Below are positions 2,906-37,948 of a stretch of 37,948 bases of DNA, one piece after another. Each line of letters starts with the position of its first letter. The stretch's first letter is position 1. Origin of the DNA: an uncultured Lachnospiraceae bacterium (lineage in GTDB: Bacteria; Bacillota; Clostridia; Lachnospirales; Lachnospiraceae); contig CACZBK010000042.1 of NCBI GenBank assembly GCA_902779395.1, positions 1 to 37,948 of the forward strand, given 5' to 3'. The position numbers were made by a program, and so were the translations under genes. Below the pieces are notes generated by a model. It was not told where the DNA came from, did no database searches, and saw only the letters and a list, made by a program, of their open reading frames with translations.

Positions 2906-4353
2906 AGCATCTCTCCGATGTAGTAAAAACCTTTATTTTCCAAAAGCTTAACATTAACATACTTACCTGTAAGGCTGCTGTCAGCCTTAAAATGGACCAG
3001 AAGATTATTGGAAAGCCTTCCGGTCACCATCGAATCATCATGATCGTTCACGCCTTCTATAAGAGCTTCGTATACACCGCCGTCATAACGTGCCACACGT
3101 TTTTTTGCTGTTTCCTGTACACATCTCAAAAGCCTGTCAAAGCCTTCTTTGATCTCCTCATCGCTCATGCTCCGCGGCATTTCGGCCGCAGGAGTCCCGC
3201 TTCGCGGAGAATAGATAAATGTAAAGGCATTATCGTACTCCACTTCTTTTACAAGACTGATGGTCTCGTCGATATCTTCAAAGGTTTCACCGGGAAAACC
3301 AACGATTATATCCGTAGTGAGTGCAAGATCCGGAACAGACTCCTTAAGACGTCTTACAAGGTCAAGATATCCTTCTCTGGTATATCCGCGGTTCATTGCT
3401 TTTAAGATACGGCTGCTTCCGCTCTGCACGGGAAGATGCAGATGCCTGCATATCTTTTCGGATACAGCCATAAGTTCTATAAGTTCATCCGAAAGATCCC
3501 TTGGATGCGAAGTCATAAAGCGGATACGCTTTATCTCGTTTATTTTTTCAACTTCTTTAAGAAGCCCGGGAAAAGTGATCTTATCAGGCAGGCCTTTGCC
3601 GTATGAATCAACATTCTGTCCAAGGAGCATGACCTCGCTTACTCCGTCTGCAGCGAGCTTTTCGATCTCCCTGATTATTTCTTTCGGTTCACGGCTTCTT
3701 TCACGGCCGCGGACATACGGTACTATACAGTAAGTACAGAATTTATCACAGCCGAACATGATGTTCACGCCTGATTTGAAAGAGAATTTACGCTCTATCG
3801 GAAGATCTTCCACTATGGCATCGGTCTTATCCCATACATCAACCACCATCTTATCGGATGAAAGCATCATAACGAGCAATTCGGGAAATTTATAGATATT
3901 ATGGGTACCGAAGATCAGATCAACAAACGAATATGATCTTTTGATCTTATCGATCACAGCAGCTTCCTGGACCATGCAGCCGCAAAGTGCGATCTTTTTA
4001 GACGGATCCTTATCCTTCATCGCATGGAGATGGCCAAGGCGGCCGTATACGCGCTGATTAGCATTATCACGCACACTGCAGGTATTATAGACGACCAGAT
4101 CCGCCTCTTCATCTTCCGTCAACATAAAACCTGTGCGGGATAATATACCGCACAGCTTTTCGGAATCTCTTGCATTCATCTGACATCCGAAAGTGACTAC
4201 ACAAGCCGAAGGAACATGTCCTTTCTTTTCAGCATATTCCCTGACCAGTATCTGCGCTTTCTGGATGAAATCTTCCTGCCTTACCGCCTCTTCTTCCGAC
4301 GAAAAACGTTCGGTAGATGTATAAGGCTTATAATCAACATCTTTCCACTTCAT
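2902..4353 (-). CDS. miaB: tRNA-2-methylthio-N6-dimethylallyladenosine synthase MiaB
   Basis: MiaB is a radical-SAM methylthiotransferase that converts i6A37 to ms2i6A37 in tRNAs reading UNN codons. The N-terminal UPF0004 domain shows the three auxiliary-cluster cysteines Cys57 (TFGCQMN), Cys92 (NTCSVRDNANQR) and Cys126 (CGCMVQE). The radical-SAM CX3CX2C motif is at Cys202/206/209 (GCDKFCTYCIVPYVRGRE). A TRAM-like RNA-binding domain fills the C-terminal 65 residues or so. The NTCSVR and GCDKFCTYC signatures favour MiaB over MtaB or RimO. The length of 483 residues is slightly long because of an N-terminal extension, as often seen in Clostridia. The ATG at 4353 shares one base with the proA TGA stop, so coupling is likely. 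Confidence 0.95.
   Translation of the reverse strand: MKWKDVDYKPYTSTERFSSEEEAVRQEDFIQKAQILVREYAEKKGHVPSACVVTFGCQMNARDSEKLCGILSRTGFMLTEDEEADLVVYNTCSVRDNANQRVYGRLGHLHAMKDKDPSKKIALCGCMVQEAAVIDKIKRSYSFVDLIFGTHNIYKFPELLVMMLSSDKMVVDVWDKTDAIVEDLPIERKFSFKSGVNIMFGCDKFCTYCIVPYVRGRERSREPKEIIREIEKLAADGVSEVMLLGQNVDSYGKGLPDKITFPGLLKEVEKINEIKRIRFMTSHPRDLSDELIELMAVSEKICRHLHLPVQSGSSRILKAMNRGYTREGYLDLVRRLKESVPDLALTTDIIVGFPGETFEDIDETISLVKEVEYDNAFTFIYSPRSGTPAAEMPRSMSDEEIKEGFDRLLRCVQETAKKRVARYDGGVYEALIEGVNDHDDSMVTGRLSNNLLVHFKADSSLTGKYVNVKLLENKGFYYIGEML
2911..2916 (-). promoter_or_regulatory. Ribosome binding site fixing the TTG start of mutS
   Basis: GGAGAG on the minus strand, five bases before the TTG at 2905. 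It lies inside the last codons of miaB. No ATG in the mutS frame is comparably placed. Confidence 0.6.
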
Positions 4354-18725: not shown

Positions 18726-20393
18726 TCAGAATAATCCGATGATCTTTCCGTTGTCGTCAACGTCAATATTATACGCTGCAGGCTGTTTTGGAAGTCCCGG
18801 CATGCTCAATATGCTGCCGGACAGCACAACAACAAAGCCTGCGCCTGCACTTACATAAACATCTCTTATATGAACAGTAAAACCTTCGGGCGCACCCAGT
18901 ACCTTCGGGTCATCCGACAGCGAATACTGTGTCTTTGCCATGCATACAGGAAGGCCGGAAAAGCCCTGTTCTTCAAGTTTTTTAATGCTTTTATCCGCTG
19001 ATGTACTGTATTCGACAGCTGATGCCCCGTATACTTTTCTGCAGACCGCTTCGATCTTTTCTTTTATGCTCTGATCATCGCTGTAAGCAAACTCAAGCTT
19101 ACTTTCCTTATCGCAAAGCTCTTTTACTATGCCGGCAAGTTCCAGACCGCCTTCTCCGCCTTTTGCAAATACTTCCGATACCGCAAAAGGAACCTTAAGC
19201 TCTTCACACACGGAGCGCAGCTCTGCTATCTCGGCATCTGTATCCTGCTCAAAACGGTTAATGGTTACCGCTACGTTCATCCCGTAAGACAGCATATTGT
19301 TTACGTGCTTTTTAAGATTAGCGCTTCCGCGTTTTAATGCGTCTGTATTTTCTTCTTTAAGTGAAGCTACCGGGATACCCCCGTTATATTTTAAAGCCCT
19401 GATGGTAGATACTATCACTACCGCATCCGGTTTAAGCCCCGTCTTTCTGCACTTTATATCAAGGAATTTTTCAGCACCCAGATCAGCTCCGAACCCTGCC
19501 TCGGTAATGCAGTAATCGCCCAGCTTAAGTGCTGCCTTTGTAGCGATGACACTGTTGCAGCCGTGAGCGATATTCGCAAAAGGCCCGCCGTGTATCAGCA
19601 CGGGATTGTGCTCTAAGGTCTGGACCAGATTAGGCTTTAACGCATCCTTAAGAAGCGCAGCCATGGGCCCGACGGCCTTTATATCCTTAGCTGTCACAGC
19701 TTTACCGTCAAGATCATATGCAACGATTATGCGAGAAAGCTTTTCTTTCAGATCCTTCATATTTTCGGCAAGACAAAGTATAGCCATTATCTCACTTGCC
19801 ACGGTAATAACAAAATGGTCCTCGCGTACAAAGCCGTCATTTTTATCGCCAAGGCCCACCACGATATTTCTTAACGCCCTGTCATTCATATCCATGCAGC
19901 GCTTCCAGAGGATCTGTCTTGTATCTATGCGCAGGACGTTACCCTGCTGGACATGATTATCTATAAGTGCGGCAAGCAGATTGTTAGCGGCAGTTATCGC
20001 ATGAAAATCTCCGGTAAAATGAAGATTGATATCCTCCATGGGAATCACCTGGCTGTATCCGCCTCCGGCAGCTCCGCCCTTCACCCCGAAACACGGCCCG
20101 AGTGAAGGCTCTCTTAAAGCCAGCACTACTTTTTCGCCCATTTTGGCAAAAGCCTGCGAAAGTCCGACACTTATCGTAGTCTTACCTTCTCCTGCGGGAG
20201 TCGGATTGATCGCGGTCACCAGTATAAGCTTGCCGTTTTTGTTTTCGCTGATGCGCTCTAAGCACTCATCCGAAAGCTTGGCTTTATATTTTCCGTAAAG
20301 CTCAAGCTCATCTTCTTCGATCCCAAGGCCTGAAGCAACTTCCCTGATCGGCAGTATCTGCGCTTCCTGTGCAATTTCGATATCACTCTTCAT
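18726..20393 (-). CDS. fhs: Formate--tetrahydrofolate ligase
   Basis: This enzyme makes 10-formyl-THF from formate, THF and ATP, feeding purine synthesis and the methyl branch of acetogenic-type C1 metabolism. The P-loop TPAGEGKTT is at residues 65-73. [20 protein letters not shown], a stretch running from FTGDFHAI into NLLAALIDN, and [20 protein letters not shown] follow as in all family members. The start is ATG at 20393, nine bases after AAAGGA, giving [12 protein letters not shown] and 555 residues, the standard length. Two earlier in-frame ATGs (20411 and 20402) either lack a site or sit on top of it. The ribosome site overlaps the end of ftsK. Confidence 0.97.
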
Positions 20394-20402
20394 AGTCTGC
20401 AT

Positions 20403-20408
20403 TCCTTT
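20403..20408 (-). promoter_or_regulatory. Ribosome binding site deciding the fhs start
   Basis: AAAGGA, nine bases before ATG at 20393. The ATG at 20402 is directly against it, and the ATG at 20411 precedes it. Confidence 0.55.
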
Positions 20409-23333
20409 CATCTGGACTTTAAGAATTCTTCCAACTGCTCCATACTCATAAGCACCTTACGGGGCTTAGTCCCTTCCTCAGGGCCCACTATGTTGTTAGC
20501 TTCCATCTGGTCTATGATCCTTGCAGCACGGTTAAAACCTATCTTAAATACACGCTGGAGCATACCGCTCGAAGCTTTTTCCTTTTCGATAACAAAGCGG
20601 CAGGCTTTTTCAAAATATTCATCCAGACCATCCCCTGCATCACTGTCGGATGACTGGTCCGATGAATCAGAAGGCGCTTCAGTCATATTGCTCACCTCAT
20701 CCAGTACCTTCTGATCATACACTTCCTGCTGCTGTGTTCTCGACTTTAAGAACTCGGCGACCTGCTGTACTTCCGCATCAGACACAAATGCTCCCTGTAC
20801 GCGGAGCGGCTTGGTAAAGCCCTGGGGAGAGTAAAGCATATCTCCGTATCCAAGAAGCTTTTCGGCTCCGGTAGCATCCAGTATGGTACGGGAATCAACA
20901 CCGCTGCCGCATTTTAAGGCCACACGGCTTGGCATGTTAGCCTTGATAAGTCCGGTAATAACGTCTACGGAAGGACGCTGCGTAGCCAGGATCATCCACG
21001 ACTATGACTATCTTAGGCAGTTTCTTTGCAACACTTCCGTCATCTTCAAGCACTTTTCCCTGATCCACCTGCTCATTGTAGGCATCTATGCCTCTTACGT
21101 CATGATCGGCAAAAAGCTTATAACGCCTGCCCATCTCGGCAACAGCCCACGCCAGGGCGACATTTGCCTTCCTGGGTTCTGTCACTACAGGCATCAAAAG
21201 ATGCGGGATACCGTTATAGACGGAAAATTCAACTACTTTGGGATCGATAAGTATCAGCTTCACTTCATCGGGATCCGCATTAAAAAGTATGCTCTGTATG
21301 ATAGAATTTGTAAATACCGATTTACCGGAACCCGTAGTACCGGCAACCAGAAGATGGGGCATCTTGCCTATATCTCCTACTATAACATGCCCGCTTATAT
21401 CCTTGCCTACAACAAATGTAAGCTTTGACGAAGCCTTCTTAAATTCCGCCGATTCTATAAGTTCCTTTAAAGATACGGGGATCCTTTCCTTATTGGGGAT
21501 CTCTATACCAACCGCAGCTTTTCCGGGTATCGGTGCTTCTATCCTTATCTCTTCCGCTGCAAGGTTAAGCTTAAGATCATCCGCCAGATTGACGATCTTG
21601 TTAACCTTTATACCTTCTCCAAGCTGCAATTCGAATCTTGTGACCGAAGGCCCCTGGCTTATATCATTAACCGTTGCAACTACACCAAAAGACTTAAGGG
21701 TCTGCTGAAGCAAAAGTGCGGTTTCCTTAAGCTCTGCTTCAGTATCTTTCTTTGTTCCCTTCTTAGGATCTTTAAGCAGCGAGATGGGAGGTTTTTCATA
21801 AGGTATCTGCGGAGCCGCATTCTGAGCAGCTTTAGTCTCTTCTGCAGCGGCAGGTGTCTTTTTAACTTCCGCCGGAGCCGGAGCAGAAACCGCCCTGTCC
21901 TCTTTCTTTTCAGGCACAGTGTCTTCTTCATCAAAAAATGAAGGTTTGGGTTTAAGCGGAAGCTCTTCCTGAGGCTTTACATTTTCGCTGACAGTTTCCT
22001 TTACTTCAGTTTCTTCTTTCACTGCTTCAGGTTCTGCAGTGATCTCCTTAACCTCTTCATAAGGCCTGATCTTAATATTGTCTATATCATTCTTTATCCC
22101 GGCTGCATCATCGCTGATATTTTCTTTGACTGCCTCAGCTTTTGCAGTATCAGAGGGCAGTGTAACTTCTCTGATCTCGTCCTCGTAGATGCGTTTAGTA
22201 TCGGTGTTATCTGAAGCGCTTTCTCCGGAGATAAAACCGGCTTCACTGCCTCCGGGCATAGCTTCATTCGGAAGCAGGGTGATCTCATGGATATCGTCCA
22301 GCTTATGCCTTCCGGGGACACCCATCTCAAAAGCTGCCTGATTTAACCTTCTTCTGCCGGGATTCGATGTACTGAGGATCCGCTCGTCCTCCGCACGTTC
22401 TTCAGCTTCCTTGCGCCGTCTTTCATTTTCCTGTTTTCTGATCCTTTTTTCTTCTTTTACTCTTTCTCTTTCTTCCTGTGCGATACGCACTTCCTCTTCA
22501 TGATGTGCACGTTTTCTGGCTGCCTCTCTCTGCTGTTCTATATGCTTTCTGCGTCTTTCTTCACGGGCGGCACGCGCTTCCTCTTCAAGCCTTGCGGCTT
22601 CATCTTCATCTATCCATTCTTCCTCTTCCTGATATCTGTTTTTCCGGGATACGATCTCCCTCTGGCCGGATACTATCTCCATCATATTATCAAAGAAGCC
22701 TCTTCCTCCTATCAGAAGGAATGAAAAAATGATAAAAAGAATGATCACGAAAAGACCGCCGCCTTTTCCAAAAAGGCCATGAAAAATAAGTGCGGGAATC
22801 CCCAGCAGAACACCACCGCCGCCTGCTTCGGAATACAGCTGTTTATTTAAAAATCCCAGTTTATCAAAAAAAGTATCCTGATACTGAAGCTGGGCGGACA
22901 GCGCTTCAAGATCAGTACCAAGAAATGCAAGAAACATCCCCAAAAAGACAAGAATGAGTATAAATCCGGCCAGCTTATGCCCGGGTGTCCTGTACTCGGC
23001 AATAAATACCTGATAAAACATGGCTGCTATCAGGATTAGCGGAAGCACATAGGCCAGAAGGCCGAATAATCCAAGCATGAGTGATCTGACAAAAGGTCCG
23101 AAACTGCCTTTTATCACGCCAAACATGCATAAACACAAAATAACGAGCACGCAAAAAACAACAAATAAGAGCACTACCGGTAAAAAACTTTCTTCCGGCT
23201 GAGGGCTTCTTTTTTTGCTGCTGTTCTTTTTTGCGGCTGATGCTCCGGACCTTCCTGCCGCCGGAGAGCTTTTACCGCCTTTAGTTTTAGAAGAAGCAGA
23301 AGTACGCCTCCTGCTGTTTGGCGCAGTAGCCAA
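20408..23333 (-). pseudogene. ftsK: DNA translocase FtsK/SpoIIIE, split by an internal deletion and frameshift
   Basis: Two frames together make one FtsK. The first, 23333-20937, has a basic N-terminus, about four membrane helices (residues 50-240), a long Arg/Glu-rich then Pro/Glu/Lys-rich linker (about 240-490), the alpha/beta motor with Walker [16 protein letters not shown] (near 660), and LPKIVIVVD, after which it runs into 18 unrelated residues and stops. The second, 20995-20408, resumes at [20 protein letters not shown] and carries the rest of the motor plus the DNA-reading gamma winged helix (LQRVFKIGFNRAARIIDQME). About 31 residues normally between these points (ELADLMM to AGxHL) are missing, roughly 92 bases, which shifts the frame. 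The start is TTG with GGAGG seven bases upstream. As written it cannot make a working motor. Assembly error is the main alternative. Confidence 0.85.
20984..21000 (-). other. Deletion/frameshift junction inside the ftsK motor
   Basis: On the minus strand GTGGAT (end of the Walker B strand, VVD) runs straight into ATCCTGGCTACGCAG (ILATQ) with a single G between. The join lies at about 20993. The conserved stretch from Walker B to the arginine-finger region is absent. Confidence 0.8.
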
Positions 23334-23360: not shown

Positions 23361-23978
23361 TCAGTTTATATCAAAGAAATCCATACCGCTCATATCCACC
23401 ACATCGAAATGCATATCCAGCAACGGTATATCATGATCAAAATCCATATCCTTAGCTTCATGCTTTTTGGGTATGGGAAGCGGATTTTTTATAGGCTGGG
23501 CAGGTTTGGGTTTGTTATTTTCTGCTTTTTCGGCAGTCTTTTCATCAGGCTTACCATAAGTTCCGGGAGCTAAGATCCCCTGTTTCTTAGCCTCATCAAC
23601 AGTCATCGCAAGGTGCAGGGCCGGCTTTGCTTCATTTTTGACATTTTCTTCAGTATTTTTGCTATTGCCGGCTGCTTTTTCTTCAGCAGGACTGACTGTT
23701 TTATGTTCTGCCATCTGCTCCAATACATGCTTAGGCGGAGCAAAACGGCTGGCACGCGCCCGGTCAAGCTCACTCATGCTGCTGACAACAGAATGATCCT
23801 TAAGAACGCCTTCAGCTTTGTTTTCATTGTTTTTATCTGTTCCGTGACTATCTTTGGCTTCGGATCTCTCTGCATTTACAGCTTCGGAGTTTTCCGGTTT
23901 TTTAACTTTCAGAAAATCCAGAGTAGCCTCAAGTTCCTTAACTTTTGCAGCCTCTTCAGCCGACTGAATATCTGCCAA
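23361..23978 (-). CDS. Hypothetical disordered charged protein
   Basis: I do not recognise this protein, about 205 residues from the chosen start. An N-terminal helical segment (ADIQSAEEAAKVKELEATLD) leads into a long low-complexity Lys/Glu/Asn/Ala region. Within that are two possible conserved pieces, SRFAPPKHVLEQMAEHK and HLAMTVDEAKKQGILAPGTY. A Pro-rich stretch (KPAQPIKNPLPIPKK) follows. The C-terminal tail DIPLLDMHFDVVDMSGMDFF is acidic and hydrophobic and could be a short binding motif. No membrane helix or signal peptide is visible. The TTG at 23978 has GGAGG eight bases upstream; the frame continues ten more codons to a TTG inside the glycosyltransferase gene, without support. It lies between the GT2 gene (1 bp gap) and ftsK (27 bp gap). 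Confidence 0.7.
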   Translation of the reverse strand: MADIQSAEEAAKVKELEATLDFLKVKKPENSEAVNAERSEAKDSHGTDKNNENKAEGVLKDHSVVSSMSELDRARASRFAPPKHVLEQMAEHKTVSPAEEKAAGNSKNTEENVKNEAKPALHLAMTVDEAKKQGILAPGTYGKPDEKTAEKAENNKPKPAQPIKNPLPIPKKHEAKDMDFDHDIPLLDMHFDVVDMSGMDFFDIN

Positions 23979-23979
23979 T

Positions 23980-24945
23980 TTAATTTCCTCCGACGTTCTG
24001 CTTATCAAGCAGTTCCTCTACATGATACAGCGGGCGATGCTTTACTTCGCTGTAGATCCTTCCCACGTATTCTCCTATTACACCTATCGCTATCAGCTGC
24101 ACTCCTCCAAGAAACCAGATAGAAAGAATAAGGGATGTCCAGCCCTTTTCCACATTACCGCTGATATAAGAAACAAATGCATAAACCGCAGCTGCCAGAC
24201 AGATAAAAAGCGCTATAACGCCTGTCTTCAATACCATCTTTATGGGTTCTGTCGAAAACGAAGTTATACCGTTTATGGCAAGAGCCAGCATCTTCTTTAA
24301 GGGATACTTGGATTCTCCGGCCTGTCTTATCCCGCGCTCATAAACCACTTCGCCGGTCTTAAGTCCAAGAAGAGGTATAAGTCCTCTCAGATAAAGGTTT
24401 GATTCCTGATATAATGCCAGTTCATCAAGAGCCTTTTTCGACATAAGACGGAAATCGGCATGATTATAGACGGTTTTCACTCCCATAGAGGAAAGCAGCT
24501 TATAATATCCCTGGGCTGTATTGCGTTTGAAGAAGGAATCTTTCTTACGACTTCCCCTGATACCGTATACTATCTCGCAGCCTTCATGATACTTATCCAC
24601 CATATCCTTTATGACTCCGATATCATCCTGAAGGTCGGCATCTATGGATATGCTTATATCGGCACGCTCTCTGGCCGTCATAAGTCCGGACAATAAAGCC
24701 GACTGATGTCCGCAGTTGCGTGAAAGCTTCTGGCCCCAGACATCAGACGAACTATCATGATTTTCTTTGATTATTTCCCATGTCCTGTCCCTGCTCCCGT
24801 CATCGACAAGAAGAATAAAACTGTCTTTACTTATACCACAGCTTTTTCTCAGATCCCCGAGGACAGAACGAAGCTTGGATATACTGTCAGGCAGTACCTC
24901 CTCTTCGTTATAACAGGGAACAACAATGGCAAGTACTTCATTCAT
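23980..24945 (-). CDS. Family 2 glycosyltransferase, polyprenyl-phosphate type (GtrB/CsbB/DPM1-like)
   Basis: A membrane-attached GT2 enzyme predicted to transfer a sugar from a nucleotide donor to a lipid-phosphate carrier on the cytoplasmic face. The catalytic domain has VVPCYNEEEVLP at the start, LVDDGSRDRTWEII, and the metal-binding SIDADLQDD near residue 103. HADFRLMSKKAL and RQAGESKYPLKKM are the usual acceptor and lipid-side motifs of the DPM1-like subfamily. Two membrane helices follow at about 240-262 and 272-296, a layout typical of GtrB, CsbB and YkcC. The ATG at 24945 lies six bases after the yebC stop with only a weak ribosome site, so it may depend on yebC translation. The acceptor product and sugar cannot be named. 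Confidence 0.88.
   Translation of the reverse strand: MNEVLAIVVPCYNEEEVLPDSISKLRSVLGDLRKSCGISKDSFILLVDDGSRDRTWEIIKENHDSSSDVWGQKLSRNCGHQSALLSGLMTARERADISISIDADLQDDIGVIKDMVDKYHEGCEIVYGIRGSRKKDSFFKRNTAQGYYKLLSSMGVKTVYNHADFRLMSKKALDELALYQESNLYLRGLIPLLGLKTGEVVYERGIRQAGESKYPLKKMLALAINGITSFSTEPIKMVLKTGVIALFICLAAAVYAFVSYISGNVEKGWTSLILSIWFLGGVQLIAIGVIGEYVGRIYSEVKHRPLYHVEELLDKQNVGGN
23987..23991 (-). promoter_or_regulatory. Ribosome binding site of the 205-residue hypothetical gene
   Basis: GGAGG within the last codons of the glycosyltransferase gene, eight bases before TTG at 23978. It decides for this start over the TTG at 24008. Confidence 0.6.
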
Positions 24946-29764: not shown

Positions 29765-31312
29765 TTATTCCAGAACTCCGTCCGCAACGCTTTTAACGTA
29801 ATCGGGAAGGGTTTCCGGTTTTTCTCCTTTTATTCCGATAAGGACACCGTCGCCTACTACCAGCAGGTCTCCGTCCTTTGCATTATCCATCCAGTTATTA
29901 TACCACGGAGTGAAATTAAATGCATACTTTCCGATCTTCTCCACACTTTTGGGTATATATACATTACTGAGCATGTCACAGTGATAAAATGCTCCTTCAT
30001 CTATCACCTGAAGACTTTCGGGAAGCTTTATATCAGTAAGATGCGTACGTGCAAAAGCAAATGCTCCTATCTGTAAAAGTCCCTCTTCAAATTCATACTC
30101 CGTAAGAGTCTGGTCCAGATAATAAAGATGATCATCAAGATATTCCGCTACATGTACCTCCGGCACCTTACTGCCGTCAAATACCGTATATTCACCGGCT
30201 TTGATCTGTACATATGCCCTGTCGGAAACAACCGGAGAATTTCCAAGGATCACGCCCTCGGCAGTAACACGAAGTCCGTCATGCACATCCAAAGACTGCT
30301 GAGGAAGCAGGATATTTCCTGCTCCGTCAGCCGATGAAGCCTGCTCATCCGTATCTTCTGCCGAAGCAGTTGTATTCTGCGTATTTTCGGTATAAGGCAT
30401 TTCTTCGGTGTAAACATAATTTATATTTATCATCGGACGGTCGGATACCTGATAGAAATGTTCATCTGCATATCTGTATGCATAAGAATAAGGACTGCAG
30501 ATAACATACATATTATCCGGGCATCCGTCAAAGGCTGTTTCATGGATCTTCCCTACCGATTCGGGGATAAAAACCTGGGCCAGCCTGGTGCAGCCGGAAA
30601 ATGCCCTTATCCCTATCTCGTTTGTGGGTATCTGCATACTGACATTTTCAAGACTTTCGCAATTGGAGAAAGCATGATCCGGTATCTTTTTGATGCCGTT
30701 AACTGTAAGGCTTTTCAGATTATCGCAGCCCCAGAAAGCATAGCGTTCAATATCGCTGACATTCTCAGGGATACCGTAAGCCTGGTTTTCCGATCCTGCA
30801 GCATACTGATACAGTTTATTGCCGTTTTTACTTAAAACTATGCTCCCGTAACTGCTGAGATACGGATTTTCGGCAGAAATGCCTATTGTTTTAAGACTGT
30901 CGCAGTCAGAAAAAGCCCCGGCTCCGAAATTCTTAAGCCCGGCTCCTATCTTAACATCTTTAAGTAAGCTGCAGCCCCAGAATGCCGAATCACCCAAAGT
31001 CGCTACACTGTCCGGTATAACAACACGCTTAAGCGCTTTGCAGTCCTTAAATGCCGATTCATCGATCCTGGTAACACTGTCCGAAAAAGTAACTTCTTCA
31101 ACATAGGGATTTCCCATGAACGCTTCCCTTCCCACCGTAGAGACCGTAGAAGGGACAAGCACCTTCGGAGAGGTGCCGTTATATGTATGCAAAACACCGC
31201 CGGTGACATTAAAATCACCGTCGGTCGATGCATTTGCACGATATATCCCGCCGATAAGCAGAACAGACAATAACGCAAAGGCGGGTATGAGCAGCAATAA
31301 GCGTTTATTCAT
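29765..31312 (-). CDS. Secreted BspA-type leucine-rich-repeat protein
   Basis: A 515-residue exported protein with a signal peptide (residues 1-29, LLLLIPAFALLSVLLIGGIY then ANAS). Residues 40-285 are BspA-type LRRs with Phe of the AF motif spaced 23 residues apart (65, 88, 111, 134, then 193, 215, 238, 261). A Thr/Ser/Asp-rich linker at about 300-335 leads to a second LRR block (about 405-470). The C-terminus LPDYVKSVADGVLE looks like the opening of another repeat that is not completed. There is no sorting signal, membrane anchor or visible wall-binding domain, so it is either released or held by a partner. The ATG at 31312 is three bases after the giant LRR gene's stop, with GGAAG seven bases before it. 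Confidence 0.88.
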   Translation of the reverse strand: MNKRLLLLIPAFALLSVLLIGGIYRANASTDGDFNVTGGVLHTYNGTSPKVLVPSTVSTVGREAFMGNPYVEEVTFSDSVTRIDESAFKDCKALKRVVIPDSVATLGDSAFWGCSLLKDVKIGAGLKNFGAGAFSDCDSLKTIGISAENPYLSSYGSIVLSKNGNKLYQYAAGSENQAYGIPENVSDIERYAFWGCDNLKSLTVNGIKKIPDHAFSNCESLENVSMQIPTNEIGIRAFSGCTRLAQVFIPESVGKIHETAFDGCPDNMYVICSPYSYAYRYADEHFYQVSDRPMININYVYTEEMPYTENTQNTTASAEDTDEQASSADGAGNILLPQQSLDVHDGLRVTAEGVILGNSPVVSDRAYVQIKAGEYTVFDGSKVPEVHVAEYLDDHLYYLDQTLTEYEFEEGLLQIGAFAFARTHLTDIKLPESLQVIDEGAFYHCDMLSNVYIPKSVEKIGKYAFNFTPWYNNWMDNAKDGDLLVVGDGVLIGIKGEKPETLPDYVKSVADGVLE

Positions 31313-31315
31313 ACC

Positions 31316-31462
31316 TTATCTTCCCGAAGATTTCTTCTTTCTTCTCTTTTCCTCTGCAATGATAGGATTCTTTTCTTTCCAGAGGAAGAGTACCGCGGAC
31401 ATCGACAGCATGCCTCCCGATAAGAACCACTTGGGTTTAATACCGTCGCCTGTCTTGGGAGT
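31316..31462 (-). other. Coding region for the cell-wall sorting signal (TPKTG)
   Basis: Encodes TPKTG, then a hydrophobic stretch WFLSGGMLSMSAVLFLW and a basic tail RRKKKSSGR. The pentapeptide departs from LPXTG at position one only. Confidence 0.75.
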
Positions 31463-34400
31463 ATTATCAACTATGCCTCTTACGATGTGGCCGGTATCAA
31501 CATATATGGTATAAGGCGAGAAGTGGGTTGCAGTAAATCGCATGCAGGGCACACCGTCTATTGTTGTATAGGATGTTGCAAGTTCCTGAAGCTGTCCGTT
31601 AATGACCGCTCCTGCCTTATTGTTTCCGGCGTATGACAGTAATGCCTCGGGTAAGGGCATCGTGATCGTAACGGCCAGTGAATTTGCATTAGATACCAGG
31701 TATGTTCCGGTAGAATCATAAAGCGAGATATCAAATGCCGCATAGCGCAGATCGTTAAAGCGCTCACCGTAGGCATTTCGCAGCGCCGATTCAACCGCCG
31801 CCGTTGCAGCTGCAGAATCGGTTATCTTAACAATAAAGTTATCGGTCGAACCTGCTACGGATGCATTACCCAGATTCTTCTTGTTATTATCGATATTATC
31901 GGTCGTTATGATAACATCCGTTCCGTTGTTACGTACTACTGGCGTAGGTGTAGCTGTTACTCCCGGAGCCAGAGTAGGTGCAGGACCGGGTACAACAGTA
32001 GGATAATTACCGCTAACGGCTTTGCTCTTGTAGGTTGCGGTAACCTTTACATCATGGCTGGGCATGATAAAGGTAGTTGATACCGCAAGTATATTGCTGA
32101 TACCTATATCTGTATTCGAAGTGGTCCAGCGGTCAAAAGTCCTGCCCTCAGGTGCTGCATATGCCGTCACGGTCACAACGCTTCCTGCAGGATACTGTCC
32201 GGAACCGGAGCCGTTCTCTACGATAGCATAGTACATCTTGCCGGTATAATTCTGGCTGCTCGATCCGCCGGCAGTTGTGGGCGTAGGTGTACTTGTCGTA
32301 CCCGGGTTAGCCGCGCTTGTAGGCGTAGGCGTGCTTCCGGGTTTTGTCGTAGGAGTAGGCGTGCCGGGAGCCGTTGTAGGAGTAGGTGATGCATTGGGAT
32401 CCGGTGTGGGGGTAGGTGTATTAGGTACGCTTGAAAGCTTAAATGTAGCCATACATACCCAGTCTTCGGTGATATTTGCTGAATAAATGGCATCCATACC
32501 CACTTCTACTCCGCCTGCCTTACATCTCCAGCCGGCAAATTCATATTTATCTTCTTCTCCGGCTCTTTCGGCAAGAGTCGTTTTAAGATTACGTTCATTC
32601 GGAACACGCGCACGGTCACCGTCCGCAACGGTCTGAGGCGGCTCTACAAGATCCCAGTTATTGTCCTGATAAAACGAAACCGTATGTGTAATATCAAAAT
32701 ATGTTGCATATATATCGCGGTCTTCCGTGATATTTGTACCTACATCAGTTCCGTATAAGGTGGTCCCGTTTACCTTGCAGGCCCATTCTTTAAAGTTGGG
32801 AGTATTTGATGTATCGGGATAACCTATCGAAACGGGTGAAGTCTCGAAAGTCTGTACACAAAGCGCCGATGAATCGAATAACTCGTCATTTATGGCATCT
32901 TTATTTTTCCAGAACCTGACAGTGATATTGCTTAAAGGTATCCAGTGTATATGAGCCGGACCATAGCCCGATTCTTTGGTACGTTTGTAAGAGAAAGAAT
33001 CCTTCGGAGTCTGTATCCAGTATTCATTTTCTTTAAGCGCATCATAATCATCAAACGCATCCACATTTATTGTTGTGGTCATGCTGGGGATCTTTACCGT
33101 AAGCCCGGGCTGACATCCCTTAAATGCTCCGTCGCCGATATTTCCGACACTTTCAGGCAGCTTGACACTGTTAAGACGTTCGCAGTCCCTGAAGCAGTCT
33201 TCACCGATCTCTGTCAGGCCGGCCGCGCCCGAAAGATCTACACCTTTTATCTTTGTGCATCCGTCAAAAGCTCCGGGTTTGATGGATGTAACATTATTCA
33301 GATATGTTGAATCAGGATCGGGAGCGATATTTCCGTTCTCTCCCGCTGCTCCCCTTGAAGATAAGCACGCTACAAGTTCCTGATCCGCTGCATTCATGTC
33401 ATGCCTGTAAAGTATCATGTTCTCGATCGAGAGATAGGGATTGGGCATGGTATAATCGGCAGACAGCTGGGTCAGTCTGTCACAGCCATGGAAAACTCTT
33501 TCTCCGATAGTATCCGATGAAGCTCCCAGCTTTTCGCCGAGGTTAGCCAGCATCAGTCTCTCACAGCTGTCAAAGCAATAATCGGGAAGCTTTTCAACTC
33601 TGGGCAGATTAACGGTAAGCATCCAGTCATTACCCTTGCTGCTCGCCTCTGTAAAGCTTGAATCACCGCTGTTAAATTCAGGCATTTTATGGATCGCATC
33701 CTCATTATCCCTGACATCACCGGAGAAGAGACCGGGATGAGATACTTCAGGAGCCGCAAATAAGGATACCCTTGAAGAAGCGGTACTTAAGCTGCTTCCA
33801 CCGTAAAGCTGCCTCTTGGTAACTCCGTAAAGCGCAAGGCTTTCGGCAGAATCATCTATATATCGTACATCATTGCTGTTTGCATCGATAAATCTCTTTA
33901 CATCAACAGAATCAACAACAGGAGGGACATTTACAAAACGGGTTGAATTTACAAGCTCCTGTTCCGTTCCCGAGAGATTTGTAAAACGGCCGTTTGTTAT
34001 CTCATTCTTAAGGCTTTCCGGAAGCTCTTCATATCTGGGATAGTCTATAAGCATTACCTTATTGGCGCCATCCATGTTAAAGCCTACCATGCTCATTGTC
34101 TGGGTACGTTTCTTTCTCTCTGCATCTGTCATATGAGGCCAGTTTTCGGCTACAGACATATCTCCGGGGACCGGACTCATATAGCATATATGTACGGAAG
34201 ATCCGTTTATAGTATTGGAAGGATCCATAGCGTATTTAAACGGCGCATAATCGGCACTTTCCGCACTTCCGTGGAAATAAAGCTTTCCGGTATTGTTATC
34301 CGCTCCCGTCTTGAAGGCATTGGCACCGATCGATCTTGCAGCATTGAGCCATGAAGGATCGGCATTCAGAGGCTGTTCCCAGTAAACATCCTCCAGTTTG

Positions 34401-37024
34401 GCACATTTTGCAAAAGCATCACTTCCGACATTAATGATGCCGGGGCCGATACTTACTTTTTCAAGTTCAGGACACTCCTCGAAACATTTGTTTCCGACAG
34501 ATACCACAGAATCACCTATGGTAACTCCTTTAAGTATATCGCTCTTTGAAAAAACATCGTCTCCGAGAGAAGTAAGGCTGTTATCAGGTATCTCAAGATA
34601 AAGTATATTATCTTTTACCAGATCAAGGCTGCCCGGAAGCAGCTCAACAACCTGCTTATTGGCAACTATATCAGGCAGTGAAAAAGGCTCTTCTTCCGTT
34701 CCGAAAGTCTTTGCAGGAGTAAGATTGCCGAGATAAGTGCAGTTTGCCACTCCGGCACTTGCATCATCGATGAGCTTAAGATCATAGAGAAATGCATCGT
34801 CTCCCATTCTCTGTCCGACTTCATAATGCCCTTCGTAGGAATAAGGAACATATTCTGAAATAGCAGAATACGTAGCCCAGGTACACATTCTGGGCTTGGC
34901 ATAATCAGCCCGGTTGTTTGTGCTGGGATCTACCTTGCCGGTTTTTCCGAGTTCAACATTTTTAGGCCCGTACACACATATTCCGGTCGTTGCCACATCC
35001 CTGAATATATTGGCATCCAGGCCAAGCAGTCCTTCCCTGTAATTATCTTCTTTCCGGATATTGACATCAGTCAGATTCGCACAGCCCAGGAATGTATTCA
35101 TGGGCAGGCGGTCATCGGCACCAAGGCCCAGTACATCAAGGTTTACGGTCTTGAGCCCTCTTCTGTTGGCCAGAAGAAAATCGCCGATTATGGAATTATA
35201 CATACAGCTGTTTTTAAGACTTTCCATCTCGGATGCCGAATCAACATTGATCGTATCAGGGACAGCAGATCCGGTAGAAGCACCCTTTATCTGTCCGCTG
35301 CTCTCAAACAGATCCACATCCGCGCCATACAGCTTATAGGAATTTGTCTGGCTCATTCTTGAAGGGAAAGTAAAATTCTGAAGCGAGGCACCGCCTGAAC
35401 GTTCAAGTGCAAAGCATGCCTTCCCCAGAGAAACATCATTTGTAATATTTGAAAAGTCAACATTGCTGAGGTTCTGCGTATTGTAAAAAGCATAATCGCC
35501 TATGTCGCATACCACCTCGGAATTGAAAGTAACATTCGAAAGAGCGGAGCAGTTATAAAACGCGCCGAATCCAAGAGTGTTTACATGCGAAGGGATGGAT
35601 ATGGAGCCTAATGTCTGGCAGTTTGCAAAAGCCTCATTGCCTATAGTCTGAAGATTGGAATAAAGCTCTACTTCCTTAAACTGTCTGCAGTTATAGAAAA
35701 CTCTCTCTCCCAGGAAAGTTACTTCTTTCATATTGGCTTTGGTAAGAGCTATACAATCCTGGAAAGCCGCATCTCCGACATAAAGCACTCCCGAATCGAG
35801 AGTTACGCTTGAGATATAGTTATCACCGGCAAAGGCTTTTTTGCCGATACCCGTGATCCTGACAGGCTTTGAATAAAGCCGCCCTTTTTCATCCATAAGA
35901 GTAGACCAGTTTTCGGGTCTTGCACTCTCAGCCCTTTTATCTGTAACTATATATATACGTTCGCTTATGGGGCCGGCATCCGCGGGTGCATGCGGGAGAG
36001 CCAAAGTGGTGCCGCTGGCAACATTAGCCCAGCTGAGCCCCATATCGCTCTTGCCAAGACCGGCAGTGGTCGTAAGCGGATCATGCCAGCGGCAGAAAGC
36101 CTCTTCGGCCTTATCATTCTGAAGTGTAAAACTGTTATATCTCCACTGTTCTCCCTGTCCGGAAGCCATCAGTTCATCATATGTGGTAACAGGGGTATTG
36201 TCAGCTTTAAGGACGGTATTCTCACTCATCCAGTCATCAAAAGCCTTCTGCCAGTCAAGATATGCCGGGAAAAGTGCAGCCATCTCGTCGGCAGGGACTA
36301 TATGCCTGTTATCACGGTCCGTTGTGTTATCGCTGACAGCTCCGACATAATTATCGCTGTTTTTGGGTATTATATAGCAGTCCTTGTGCGGATCAAAAAC
36401 AACAAATTTGAAATCACGGTATTTTCTATTGAGGAAATCCTCATAATATGTATCAGAATAAAAATCATAATTCCCGCAAATGGAATTACCTACGAAAATA
36501 TCGGAATTACTGCTTCCCAGATCCCTGTTGTGATCGCAGATAACGCCAAGTTTCTGCGAAGGATTATTTGCAGCCGACGCTTCGTAATATTTGTACATGT
36601 TCTGTACATAGTTACTGTTATCGATGGTAAGCGACCAGCCCGTAGTTTCCGTGGAAGCCTCACCCGGAACGGCAAGATCGAGTTCGGGAGCGTTATTATC
36701 CCTCTGAACAGGATCTGCGTTGGCAAGTTCGGCGGTATAAGCAAGTCCGTAATTGGAATCGCTTAATAATGGAGCATCTTCATAAAATGTACCGTCAGCC
36801 TTCACACCGTTAAGCATGTTAATGGCTGCAAAAACATCTTTCTGCTCCTTTGTGATCGACGCCTGGGCAGTACCCGATTTATCGGAAGGCAGGGATGCCA
36901 CTATAAGAGCCGAGGCAAGAAGAACACCTGCTACAGACCTTCTCACAACCTTCCGTCCTTTAGCATTCAGTTTTCTCTTCTTTTTGACCGGGGTGTTTCT
37001 TTTGATATTCCTGTTCTCAGCCAT
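31316..37024 (-). CDS. Giant BspA-type LRR surface protein with TPKTG sorting signal
   Basis: A 1902-residue cell-surface protein. A long basic signal region (KKKRKLNAKGRKVVRRSVAG then LLASALIVASL) precedes about 350 residues without clear repeats. BspA LRR blocks with 23-residue AF spacing lie at about 385-525, 805-880 and 1140-1340. Two Listeria-Bacteroides (Flg_new/InlB B-type) repeats follow at about 1350-1530, then a Thr/Pro linker (1533-1584) and a further InlB-like repeat (KMYYAIVENGSGSGQYPAGS). A C-terminal domain ending ATHFSPYTIYVDTGH precedes TPKTG (1855-1859), a hydrophobic helix and a Lys/Arg tail, the layout of a sortase substrate. The ATG is seven bases after GGAGG. A class B sortase lies 51 bp upstream. 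Adhesion or host-glycan contact is the usual role of such proteins, not proven here. Confidence 0.92.
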   Translation of the reverse strand: MAENRNIKRNTPVKKKRKLNAKGRKVVRRSVAGVLLASALIVASLPSDKSGTAQASITKEQKDVFAAINMLNGVKADGTFYEDAPLLSDSNYGLAYTAELANADPVQRDNNAPELDLAVPGEASTETTGWSLTIDNSNYVQNMYKYYEASAANNPSQKLGVICDHNRDLGSSNSDIFVGNSICGNYDFYSDTYYEDFLNRKYRDFKFVVFDPHKDCYIIPKNSDNYVGAVSDNTTDRDNRHIVPADEMAALFPAYLDWQKAFDDWMSENTVLKADNTPVTTYDELMASGQGEQWRYNSFTLQNDKAEEAFCRWHDPLTTTAGLGKSDMGLSWANVASGTTLALPHAPADAGPISERIYIVTDKRAESARPENWSTLMDEKGRLYSKPVRITGIGKKAFAGDNYISSVTLDSGVLYVGDAAFQDCIALTKANMKEVTFLGERVFYNCRQFKEVELYSNLQTIGNEAFANCQTLGSISIPSHVNTLGFGAFYNCSALSNVTFNSEVVCDIGDYAFYNTQNLSNVDFSNITNDVSLGKACFALERSGGASLQNFTFPSRMSQTNSYKLYGADVDLFESSGQIKGASTGSAVPDTINVDSASEMESLKNSCMYNSIIGDFLLANRRGLKTVNLDVLGLGADDRLPMNTFLGCANLTDVNIRKEDNYREGLLGLDANIFRDVATTGICVYGPKNVELGKTGKVDPSTNNRADYAKPRMCTWATYSAISEYVPYSYEGHYEVGQRMGDDAFLYDLKLIDDASAGVANCTYLGNLTPAKTFGTEEEPFSLPDIVANKQVVELLPGSLDLVKDNILYLEIPDNSLTSLGDDVFSKSDILKGVTIGDSVVSVGNKCFEECPELEKVSIGPGIINVGSDAFAKCAKLEDVYWEQPLNADPSWLNAARSIGANAFKTGADNNTGKLYFHGSAESADYAPFKYAMDPSNTINGSSVHICYMSPVPGDMSVAENWPHMTDAERKKRTQTMSMVGFNMDGANKVMLIDYPRYEELPESLKNEITNGRFTNLSGTEQELVNSTRFVNVPPVVDSVDVKRFIDANSNDVRYIDDSAESLALYGVTKRQLYGGSSLSTASSRVSLFAAPEVSHPGLFSGDVRDNEDAIHKMPEFNSGDSSFTEASSKGNDWMLTVNLPRVEKLPDYCFDSCERLMLANLGEKLGASSDTIGERVFHGCDRLTQLSADYTMPNPYLSIENMILYRHDMNAADQELVACLSSRGAAGENGNIAPDPDSTYLNNVTSIKPGAFDGCTKIKGVDLSGAAGLTEIGEDCFRDCERLNSVKLPESVGNIGDGAFKGCQPGLTVKIPSMTTTINVDAFDDYDALKENEYWIQTPKDSFSYKRTKESGYGPAHIHWIPLSNITVRFWKNKDAINDELFDSSALCVQTFETSPVSIGYPDTSNTPNFKEWACKVNGTTLYGTDVGTNITEDRDIYATYFDITHTVSFYQDNNWDLVEPPQTVADGDRARVPNERNLKTTLAERAGEEDKYEFAGWRCKAGGVEVGMDAIYSANITEDWVCMATFKLSSVPNTPTPTPDPNASPTPTTAPGTPTPTTKPGSTPTPTSAANPGTTSTPTPTTAGGSSSQNYTGKMYYAIVENGSGSGQYPAGSVVTVTAYAAPEGRTFDRWTTSNTDIGISNILAVSTTFIMPSHDVKVTATYKSKAVSGNYPTVVPGPAPTLAPGVTATPTPVVRNNGTDVIITTDNIDNNKKNLGNASVAGSTDNFIVKITDSAAATAAVESALRNAYGERFNDLRYAAFDISLYDSTGTYLVSNANSLAVTITMPLPEALLSYAGNNKAGAVINGQLQELATSYTTIDGVPCMRFTATHFSPYTIYVDTGHIVRGIVDNTPKTGDGIKPKWFLSGGMLSMSAVLFLWKEKNPIIAEEKRRKKKSSGR
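32274..32427 (-). repeat. Degenerate minisatellite coding the Thr/Pro linker
   Basis: Imperfect repeats of gtaggngtaggngt on the plus strand encode TPTPTT units separated by short Gly/Ser/Asn spacers (about residues 1533-1584 of the giant LRR protein). Such tracts can change copy number. Confidence 0.65.
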
Positions 37025-37075
37025 ATTATGTTTCCTCCGTTTATAGCTGTAAAAGCTCTCTTATTTATCAAAAAA

Positions 37076-37948
37076 CTAGCGTATCTTCTTTGCCACGACC
37101 ACAAACCTGCCGTTTTCTTCGTTATAATCGCAGGTAGATAAGGTCAGAAGCCGGTCTCCGTAATGTGCTGTCACACCGGTATCGTAGTAGGAAAGCCTGC
37201 TCATCTCATTCATGTATGAGGCAAATTCCTCTTCCGAATGTGCATCGATGAACTGATAGTACTTAAATACCACCTGATCCGCATCATAAACACGCGAACG
37301 GAAGGCATACATCACCTGATATCTGCCTTCTTCATAAATAGTATCAAACTGTATGATCGGGTGATTTGCATAATACCTCTCCGACTCATACTCCGACAGC
37401 TTCGAAAACATCCTCCCGCTCTGCAGATGATGCCCGTATATGATAAAATTATCATTTCCGTTTACGATATCACAGCTGCAGTCCAGAAAGAGACATCCGG
37501 CCCTGTCATCCTTCTTGTCAAAGTCATGCGACAGATAATATTCGTTATCCTTTGCCTGCATGACGGGTCCATCAATATTTGTATCGTCAATTTTAACCCA
37601 TCCGATAAGGTCTTTATTCAAATAATATAAAGATTTATACTGCTCCAGCACTTCAAGGGTACGTTTATACCCGCTTTCATCCACTATCGTAGCGGTATAA
37701 AAGCCCTCATCCCCCTTATTCTGCGGTATATTGGCCAGAACATCATTTCCTACCAGATGGGAAAGCTCTCCCCCTCTGTCATCACCTTTTCCGGCATTCA
37801 TATAATACAGGCCATAACCGCCAAAACCGCATATCATCAACACAACAAAGGCCAGGATAAGAAGTTTCCTGTTCCGCTCCGCTCTTTTCATCTCTGCAAG
37901 GATACGTCTCTGCATTTCAGGATCGTAATCCTCTAAGCGTTTCGGTCT
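37076..37948 (-). CDS. Class B sortase, N-terminus probably beyond window edge
   Basis: A membrane-bound transpeptidase predicted to cleave a sorting signal and link the protein to the wall. Counting from the in-window ATG at 37915, the membrane helix is at about 18-38. The catalytic His is in NFIIYGHHLQSG (His162), the Cys in TLSTCDY (Cys262), and the Arg in NEENGRFVVV (Arg270). The TLSTCDYNEENGRF form and the EYYLSHDFDKKDDRAGCLFL stretch are typical of SrtB-type enzymes. The frame stays open to the window edge (RPKRLEDYDPE before the ATG), and that ATG has no ribosome site, so the true start may lie outside. Its neighbour downstream is the giant LRR protein bearing TPKTG, the likely substrate. 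Confidence 0.9.
   Translation of the reverse strand, partial: RPKRLEDYDPEMQRRILAEMKRAERNRKLLILAFVVLMICGFGGYGLYYMNAGKGDDRGGELSHLVGNDVLANIPQNKGDEGFYTATIVDESGYKRTLEVLEQYKSLYYLNKDLIGWVKIDDTNIDGPVMQAKDNEYYLSHDFDKKDDRAGCLFLDCSCDIVNGNDNFIIYGHHLQSGRMFSKLSEYESERYYANHPIIQFDTIYEEGRYQVMYAFRSRVYDADQVVFKYYQFIDAHSEEEFASYMNEMSRLSYYDTGVTAHYGDRLLTLSTCDYNEENGRFVVVAKKIR

What the first reader, a model, noticed from the sequence alone, without database searches (positions are those of the whole stretch)
20408..23333. FtsK motor split by an out-of-frame deletion just after Walker B
The first frame is a normal FtsK up to the Walker B strand (KIVIVVD), then derails and stops. The remainder, from ILATQRPS through the gamma domain, is intact in another frame. 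Relative to the family about 31 residues (roughly 92 bases) are missing, including the highly conserved ELADLMM stretch. Everything else in the gene is well kept, so the lesion is recent or an assembly fault. If real, the cell lacks this chromosome-terminus translocase or relies on a second SpoIIIE.
Basis: partly seen in the sequence, partly recalled or inferred. Interest (0 to 1): 0.7.

Follow-up and report, generated by a model that had tools for sequence, protein, structure and literature searches.

The report
Single FtsK gene broken by deletion
The only copy of the common cell-division DNA pump FtsK in this gut bacterium's draft genome lacks a 92-letter piece that related genomes keep, most likely an assembly fault or a very recent mutation rather than anything new.

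Summary
On the minus strand ftsK reads normally from 23333 to the Walker B strand (KIVIVVD), then loses frame and stops at 20937; the rest, ILATQRPS to the gamma domain, is intact in another frame to 20408. In 108 of 109 related loci read, exactly 31 residues (93 bases) stand here; the other locus is a contig end. One base remains, so the net loss is 92 bases. No relative read shares the short form. The missing piece and a second FtsK were not found in the 56-contig, 97%-complete assembly. Both halves are otherwise as conserved as in relatives, so the lesion is very recent or an assembly fault. I lean slightly to a fault (0.55 against 0.42); reads must decide. At least 3 of 149 other family genomes also show a broken ftsK, elsewhere in the gene. 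If real, the loss may be tolerable: SMC is intact and two spore markers are absent. Ordinary; low interest.

The parts
20994..23333 (-). ftsK, in-frame 5' part: N-terminal/linker region, alpha domain and beta motor through Walker A (GTTGSGKS) to the Walker B strand KIVIVVD
   Evidence: ORF list; Pfam PF17854 and PF01580 partial; tblastn to G017 and G032
20937..20993 (-). out-of-frame tail of the first frame after the lesion ([18 protein letters not shown], then stop); the same bases code ILATQRPS... in the other frame
   Evidence: junction read
20990..20998 (.). deletion junction (net 92 bases absent relative to relatives; exact breakpoint ambiguous by up to about 3 bases)
   Evidence: junction k-mers of 13, 15, 17 and 21 occur once in the window plus a 400-kb genome sample
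20408..20995 (-). ftsK, 3' part in another frame: end of beta motor plus gamma DNA-reading domain; its ATG spans the junction
   Evidence: PF09397; 84-88% identity to G012, G017 and G032

Best explanation
This is an ordinary, single-copy FtsK/SpoIIIE-type DNA translocase gene that, in this one assembly, lacks a net 92 bases right after the Walker B aspartate. That removes the catalytic-glutamate/ELADLMM stretch and shifts the frame. I think it slightly more likely that the gap was made in the assembly (a chimeric read, a gap-closing or scaffold join, or a minority variant put into the consensus) than that the cell is FtsK-minus. Shown: the lesion, its absence from the relatives read, the conserved flanks, no second copy found in the assembly. 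Inferred: that the missing piece exists in the organism.
For: The gamma domain was found in 150 of 150 family genomes at least 90% complete, the window's own genome included, so the gene is close to universal there. No sign of relaxed selection: at columns invariant in the relatives the window deviates at 2 of 166 (5' part) and 2 of 89 (3' part); the same leave-one-out count gives 1 and 5 (5' part) and 1 and 2 (3' part) for its two nearest full-length relatives L004 and L005. Three of the 149 other genomes show a break at other places in the gene, one of them beside N letters, so isolated breaks of this gene do occur in drafts. The missing segment was not found elsewhere in G000.
Against: No repeat was found that would explain a misjoin: junction k-mers of 13 to 21 occur once in the window plus a 400-kb sample. 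The assembly looks good otherwise (56 contigs, 97% complete, 0.32 contamination; a contig of 275 kb). In the sampled comparison with G017 no gene other than ftsK was split, and the other window genes that could be compared are not split. One review says such mutants are generally viable (PMC4255302, passages), so a real loss is quite possible. The conservation test cannot see decay much younger than the split from relatives 70-88% identical.
Confidence: 0.55

Rival explanations
1. A real, very recent out-of-frame deletion inactivated the only FtsK of the sequenced strain, perhaps in culture. The first frame would give a protein with a dead motor. Segregation would then rely on SMC and ordinary division timing.
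For: Clean junction without a repeated k-mer in what was held. Possible 3-base microhomology (TGA) if the lost last codon ended in TG, as CTG or TTG does in 81 of 108 relatives counted. Otherwise sound assembly in what was sampled. SMC present as a full-length match. No Spo0A_C or SpoIVA match in G000, with B. subtilis positive in the same searches, so a sporulation pump may not be needed. The review PMC4255302 (passages) says mutation of FtsK/SpoIIIE translocases does not generally lead to loss of viability, though it can be lethal or sick together with SMC impairment.
Against: Gamma domain present in 150 of 150 family genomes, own included. No other decay in the gene. PMC11898615 (passages) states that ftsK deletion is severe or lethal in most bacteria and that its authors failed to obtain an ftsK deletion in wild-type C. 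glutamicum.
Confidence: 0.42
2. The two pieces are a functional split or recoded FtsK: a programmed frameshift or hop, or two subunits made separately.
For: The junction creates an ATG for the second piece, and both pieces are conserved.
Against: The 31 residues, including the Walker B glutamate stretch, were not found in the assembly, so recoding could not supply them. No relative read shares the split (108 of 109 intact there, one cut by a contig end).
Confidence: 0.02
3. A second FtsK/SpoIIIE covers the loss and lies in the unassembled few percent of the genome.
For: Assembly is 97% complete, not closed. In one search, 8 of 150 family genomes have two or three gamma-domain matches.
Against: 142 of 150 family genomes have a single gamma match. 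No second copy in G000 by three searches.
Confidence: 0.01

Closest known systems
FtsK/SpoIIIE DNA translocase (Pfam PF17854 alpha, PF01580 beta, PF09397 gamma; solved homologues FtsK 2iut, 2ius)
   Same: Domain order, Walker A, alpha domain and gamma domain; 71-89% identity to close relatives outside the lesion. The unbroken relative P0001 (618 residues, cut at its start by a contig end) aligns to solved FtsK chains, which carry the segment that is missing here
   Different: 31 residues after Walker B are missing and the reading frame changes
Other draft genomes of the same family with interrupted ftsK (G107, G158, G113)
   Same: ftsK interrupted once; the rest still matches
   Different: Other places and kinds: a frame change later in the gene (G107), one in-frame stop near the start of the alpha domain (G158), a frame change before the alpha domain beside N letters (G113)

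Membership tests
FtsK/SpoIIIE DNA translocase | alpha domain (PF17854) | tested here: met
   112.1 bits, cut-off 22.9
FtsK/SpoIIIE DNA translocase | beta RecA-type motor with Walker A | tested here: met
   PF01580 163.4 bits, profile 2-177 of 221; GTTGSGKS read in the translation (motif name recalled)
FtsK/SpoIIIE DNA translocase | complete Walker B with catalytic glutamate and the ELADLMM stretch | tested here: not met
   absent here, present with fixed spacing in 108 of 109 relatives read; role of the glutamate recalled
FtsK/SpoIIIE DNA translocase | gamma DNA-reading domain in the same reading frame | tested here: not met
   PF09397 98.9 bits but in the other frame
FtsK/SpoIIIE DNA translocase | N-terminal membrane helices | not tested
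   hydrophobic stretches visible in the translation; no predictor run
FtsK/SpoIIIE DNA translocase | ATP-driven DNA translocation | not testable with these tools
   needs a bench assay

The most novel reading that the evidence does not exclude
A wild, growing Lachnospiraceae lineage has lost its only FtsK/SpoIIIE translocase by a recent deletion and completes chromosome segregation with SMC alone, in a family where the gene is otherwise close to universal.
Probability: 0.15. Interest if true: 0.35.

Novelty: already known. Interest (0 to 1): 0.08.

Why it matters
Mostly as annotation hygiene: an apparently broken FtsK in this species should not be read as biology until reads are checked. If the loss were real and fixed, it would be a natural FtsK-null with SMC present, useful for asking how far FtsK is dispensable in anaerobic Firmicutes.

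Tried and rejected
Second FtsK in the genome: none found; the weak PF01580 match on C19 (20.5 bits, under the cut-off) was not followed up. Missing segment relocated to another contig: no match to a degenerate pattern with 2 mismatches allowed (the reversed-pattern control also gave 0, and I ran no positive control on a genome that has the segment). The protein search found only the two pieces; its second match reports two TAG inside, which I take to be the alignment running past the junction into the other frame, since the ORF list shows no stop inside the piece. Repeat-induced misjoin: no repeated k-mer of 13 or more at the junction, in the window plus 400 kb only. Relaxed selection or an old pseudogene: no sign. 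General frame damage in the assembly: 20 stretches of G000 (400 kb) plus the window were compared with 40 stretches of G017 (513 kb, six short contigs of it wholly N) plus the 35-kb syntenic piece. Of 55 stop-to-stop frames of G017 with a hit of 60% or more, 2 were split: ftsK and an antisense frame of ftsK. In the reverse direction (the 20 G000 stretches, without the window) 0 of 31. These counts include antisense frames and the overlap is small. Lineage-wide short form: rejected. The first count of codons at the breakpoints had a wrong spacer and found 0 of 109; corrected. Papers, listings only: FtsK with pseudogene and Lachnospiraceae gave one unrelated paper; FtsK, SpoIIIE, 'not essential' and Clostridium gave three, none opened; assembly errors in MAGs gave four, none opened; SpoIIIE, FtsK and SftA gave nine, of which passages of two were read. 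No structure prediction, fold search or RNA tool was used.

Full report
What is there. The window is the whole of contig C42 of a 3.58-Mb, 56-contig assembly, 97% complete. The 80 loci kept from the genome collection are mostly from records labelled Lachnospiraceae, the closest from a goat omasum MAG (L033, 88% over the second piece). The gene lies on the minus strand between a gene with no Pfam match at 1e-5 (23361-24008) and formate-tetrahydrofolate ligase (18726-20411). Its first frame (23333 to 20937, 798 aa) has the FtsK alpha domain and the motor up to profile position 177 of 221; the second frame (20995 to 20408, 195 aa) has the gamma domain. The break falls directly after KIVIVVD.

How much is missing. 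Of 109 related loci read (29 from genus genomes, 80 from the genome collection, with some duplicates between the two sets), 108 have exactly 31 residues between VD or ID and the residue pair before ATQRPS. The exception, L105, begins inside the segment at its contig end. My first expression missed six loci because five have ID for VD and one is that contig end. The window has one base where relatives have 93, so 92 are absent and the frame shifts.

Is it shared, relocated or compensated? No relative read has the short form. The missing segment was not found elsewhere in G000 by protein or pattern (the pattern had no positive control). There is one PF01580 match over the cut-off and one gamma-domain match. 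Recoding could not help, because the catalytic stretch itself was not found in the assembly.

How old is it? At columns invariant in seven relatives the 5' part deviates at 2 of 166; the same leave-one-out count gives 1 and 5 for L004 and L005, 4 and 1 for L006 and L007, and 13, 22 and 41 for L008, L009 and L011. The 3' part deviates at 2 of 89 (eight relatives), against 0-2 for L004, L005, L006, L007 and L010 and 7-9 for L008, L009 and L011. No further stop or shift is present in either piece. The gene shows normal constraint; because the nearest relatives are only 71-89% identical, the test says the lesion is young but not how young. Of 28 window ORFs (the two ftsK pieces counted separately) compared with the fetched stretches of G012, G017 and G032, 27 gave hits (37076-37915 had none), and only ftsK is split. 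The first 600 residues of 31316-37024 were not covered by a full-length match, and 23361-24008 is only 38-41% alike.

Assembly fault or real? For a fault: near-universality (gamma domain in 150 of 150 family genomes at least 90% complete, the window's own included), no decay, and similar one-off breaks in other drafts. Among the 150 listed best matches, seven besides the window have an open frame under 700 residues. Four (G082, G114, G060, G149) are contig ends. Three are internal: G107 has a frame change late in the motor, G158 an in-frame stop near the start of the alpha domain, G113 a frame change before the alpha domain beside N letters. Breaks that leave a longer gamma-bearing frame would be missed, so 3 of 149 is a lower bound; whether those three are real was not tested. 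Against a fault: no repeated k-mer of 13 to 21 at the junction in what I held, and an otherwise sound sample. ftsK (and its antisense frame) was the only split case among 55 G017 frames compared with the window plus 400 kb of G000, and 0 of 31 were split in the other direction. I weigh this at 0.55 for a fault and 0.42 for a real recent deletion; the numbers are judgement.

If real. SMC is present as a full-length match (1109.7 bits). Neither Spo0A_C nor SpoIVA was found in G000, while B. subtilis rang in both searches. Spo0A_C was found in 4 of 25 genus genomes at least 90% complete, so a spore-specific pump is probably not needed. A review (PMC4255302, passages) says FtsK/SpoIIIE mutations do not generally cost viability but can be lethal or sick together with SMC impairment. 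Another paper (PMC11898615, passages) calls ftsK loss severe or lethal in most bacteria. So a real loss might be tolerable but costly, and most likely recent or selected in culture (inference).

Verdict. The thing is an ordinary FtsK gene with a private lesion of undecided origin; it carries no new biology unless reads prove it real and fixed.

Noticed in passing
L122 (G107:C41:1-4500), near 1419-1423: Another family genome has its ftsK split by a frame change, later in the gene than in the window.
   Followed up: partly
L124 (G158:C61:1-6500), 3151-3153: A single in-frame stop interrupts ftsK near the start of the alpha domain; a frame that reads like formate-tetrahydrofolate ligase follows downstream, as in the window (that gene recognised by its likeness to the window's, not searched).
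   Followed up: partly
L126 (G113:C38:8500-13500): ftsK frame change before the alpha domain next to N letters, most likely an assembly gap.
   Followed up: partly
window 23361-24008, minus strand: Gene next to ftsK is only 38-41% identical to its relatives in G017 and G032, while its neighbours are 68-86% identical there, and it has no Pfam match: fast-evolving, unknown.
   Followed up: no
window 29765-37915, minus strand: Two BspA-type leucine-rich-repeat proteins (515 and 1902 aa) beside a sortase-domain protein, near the contig end.
   Followed up: no
genus genomes: Spo0A C-terminal domain found in only 4 of 25 genus genomes at least 90% complete, so this sporulation regulator is patchy within the genus.
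   Followed up: no
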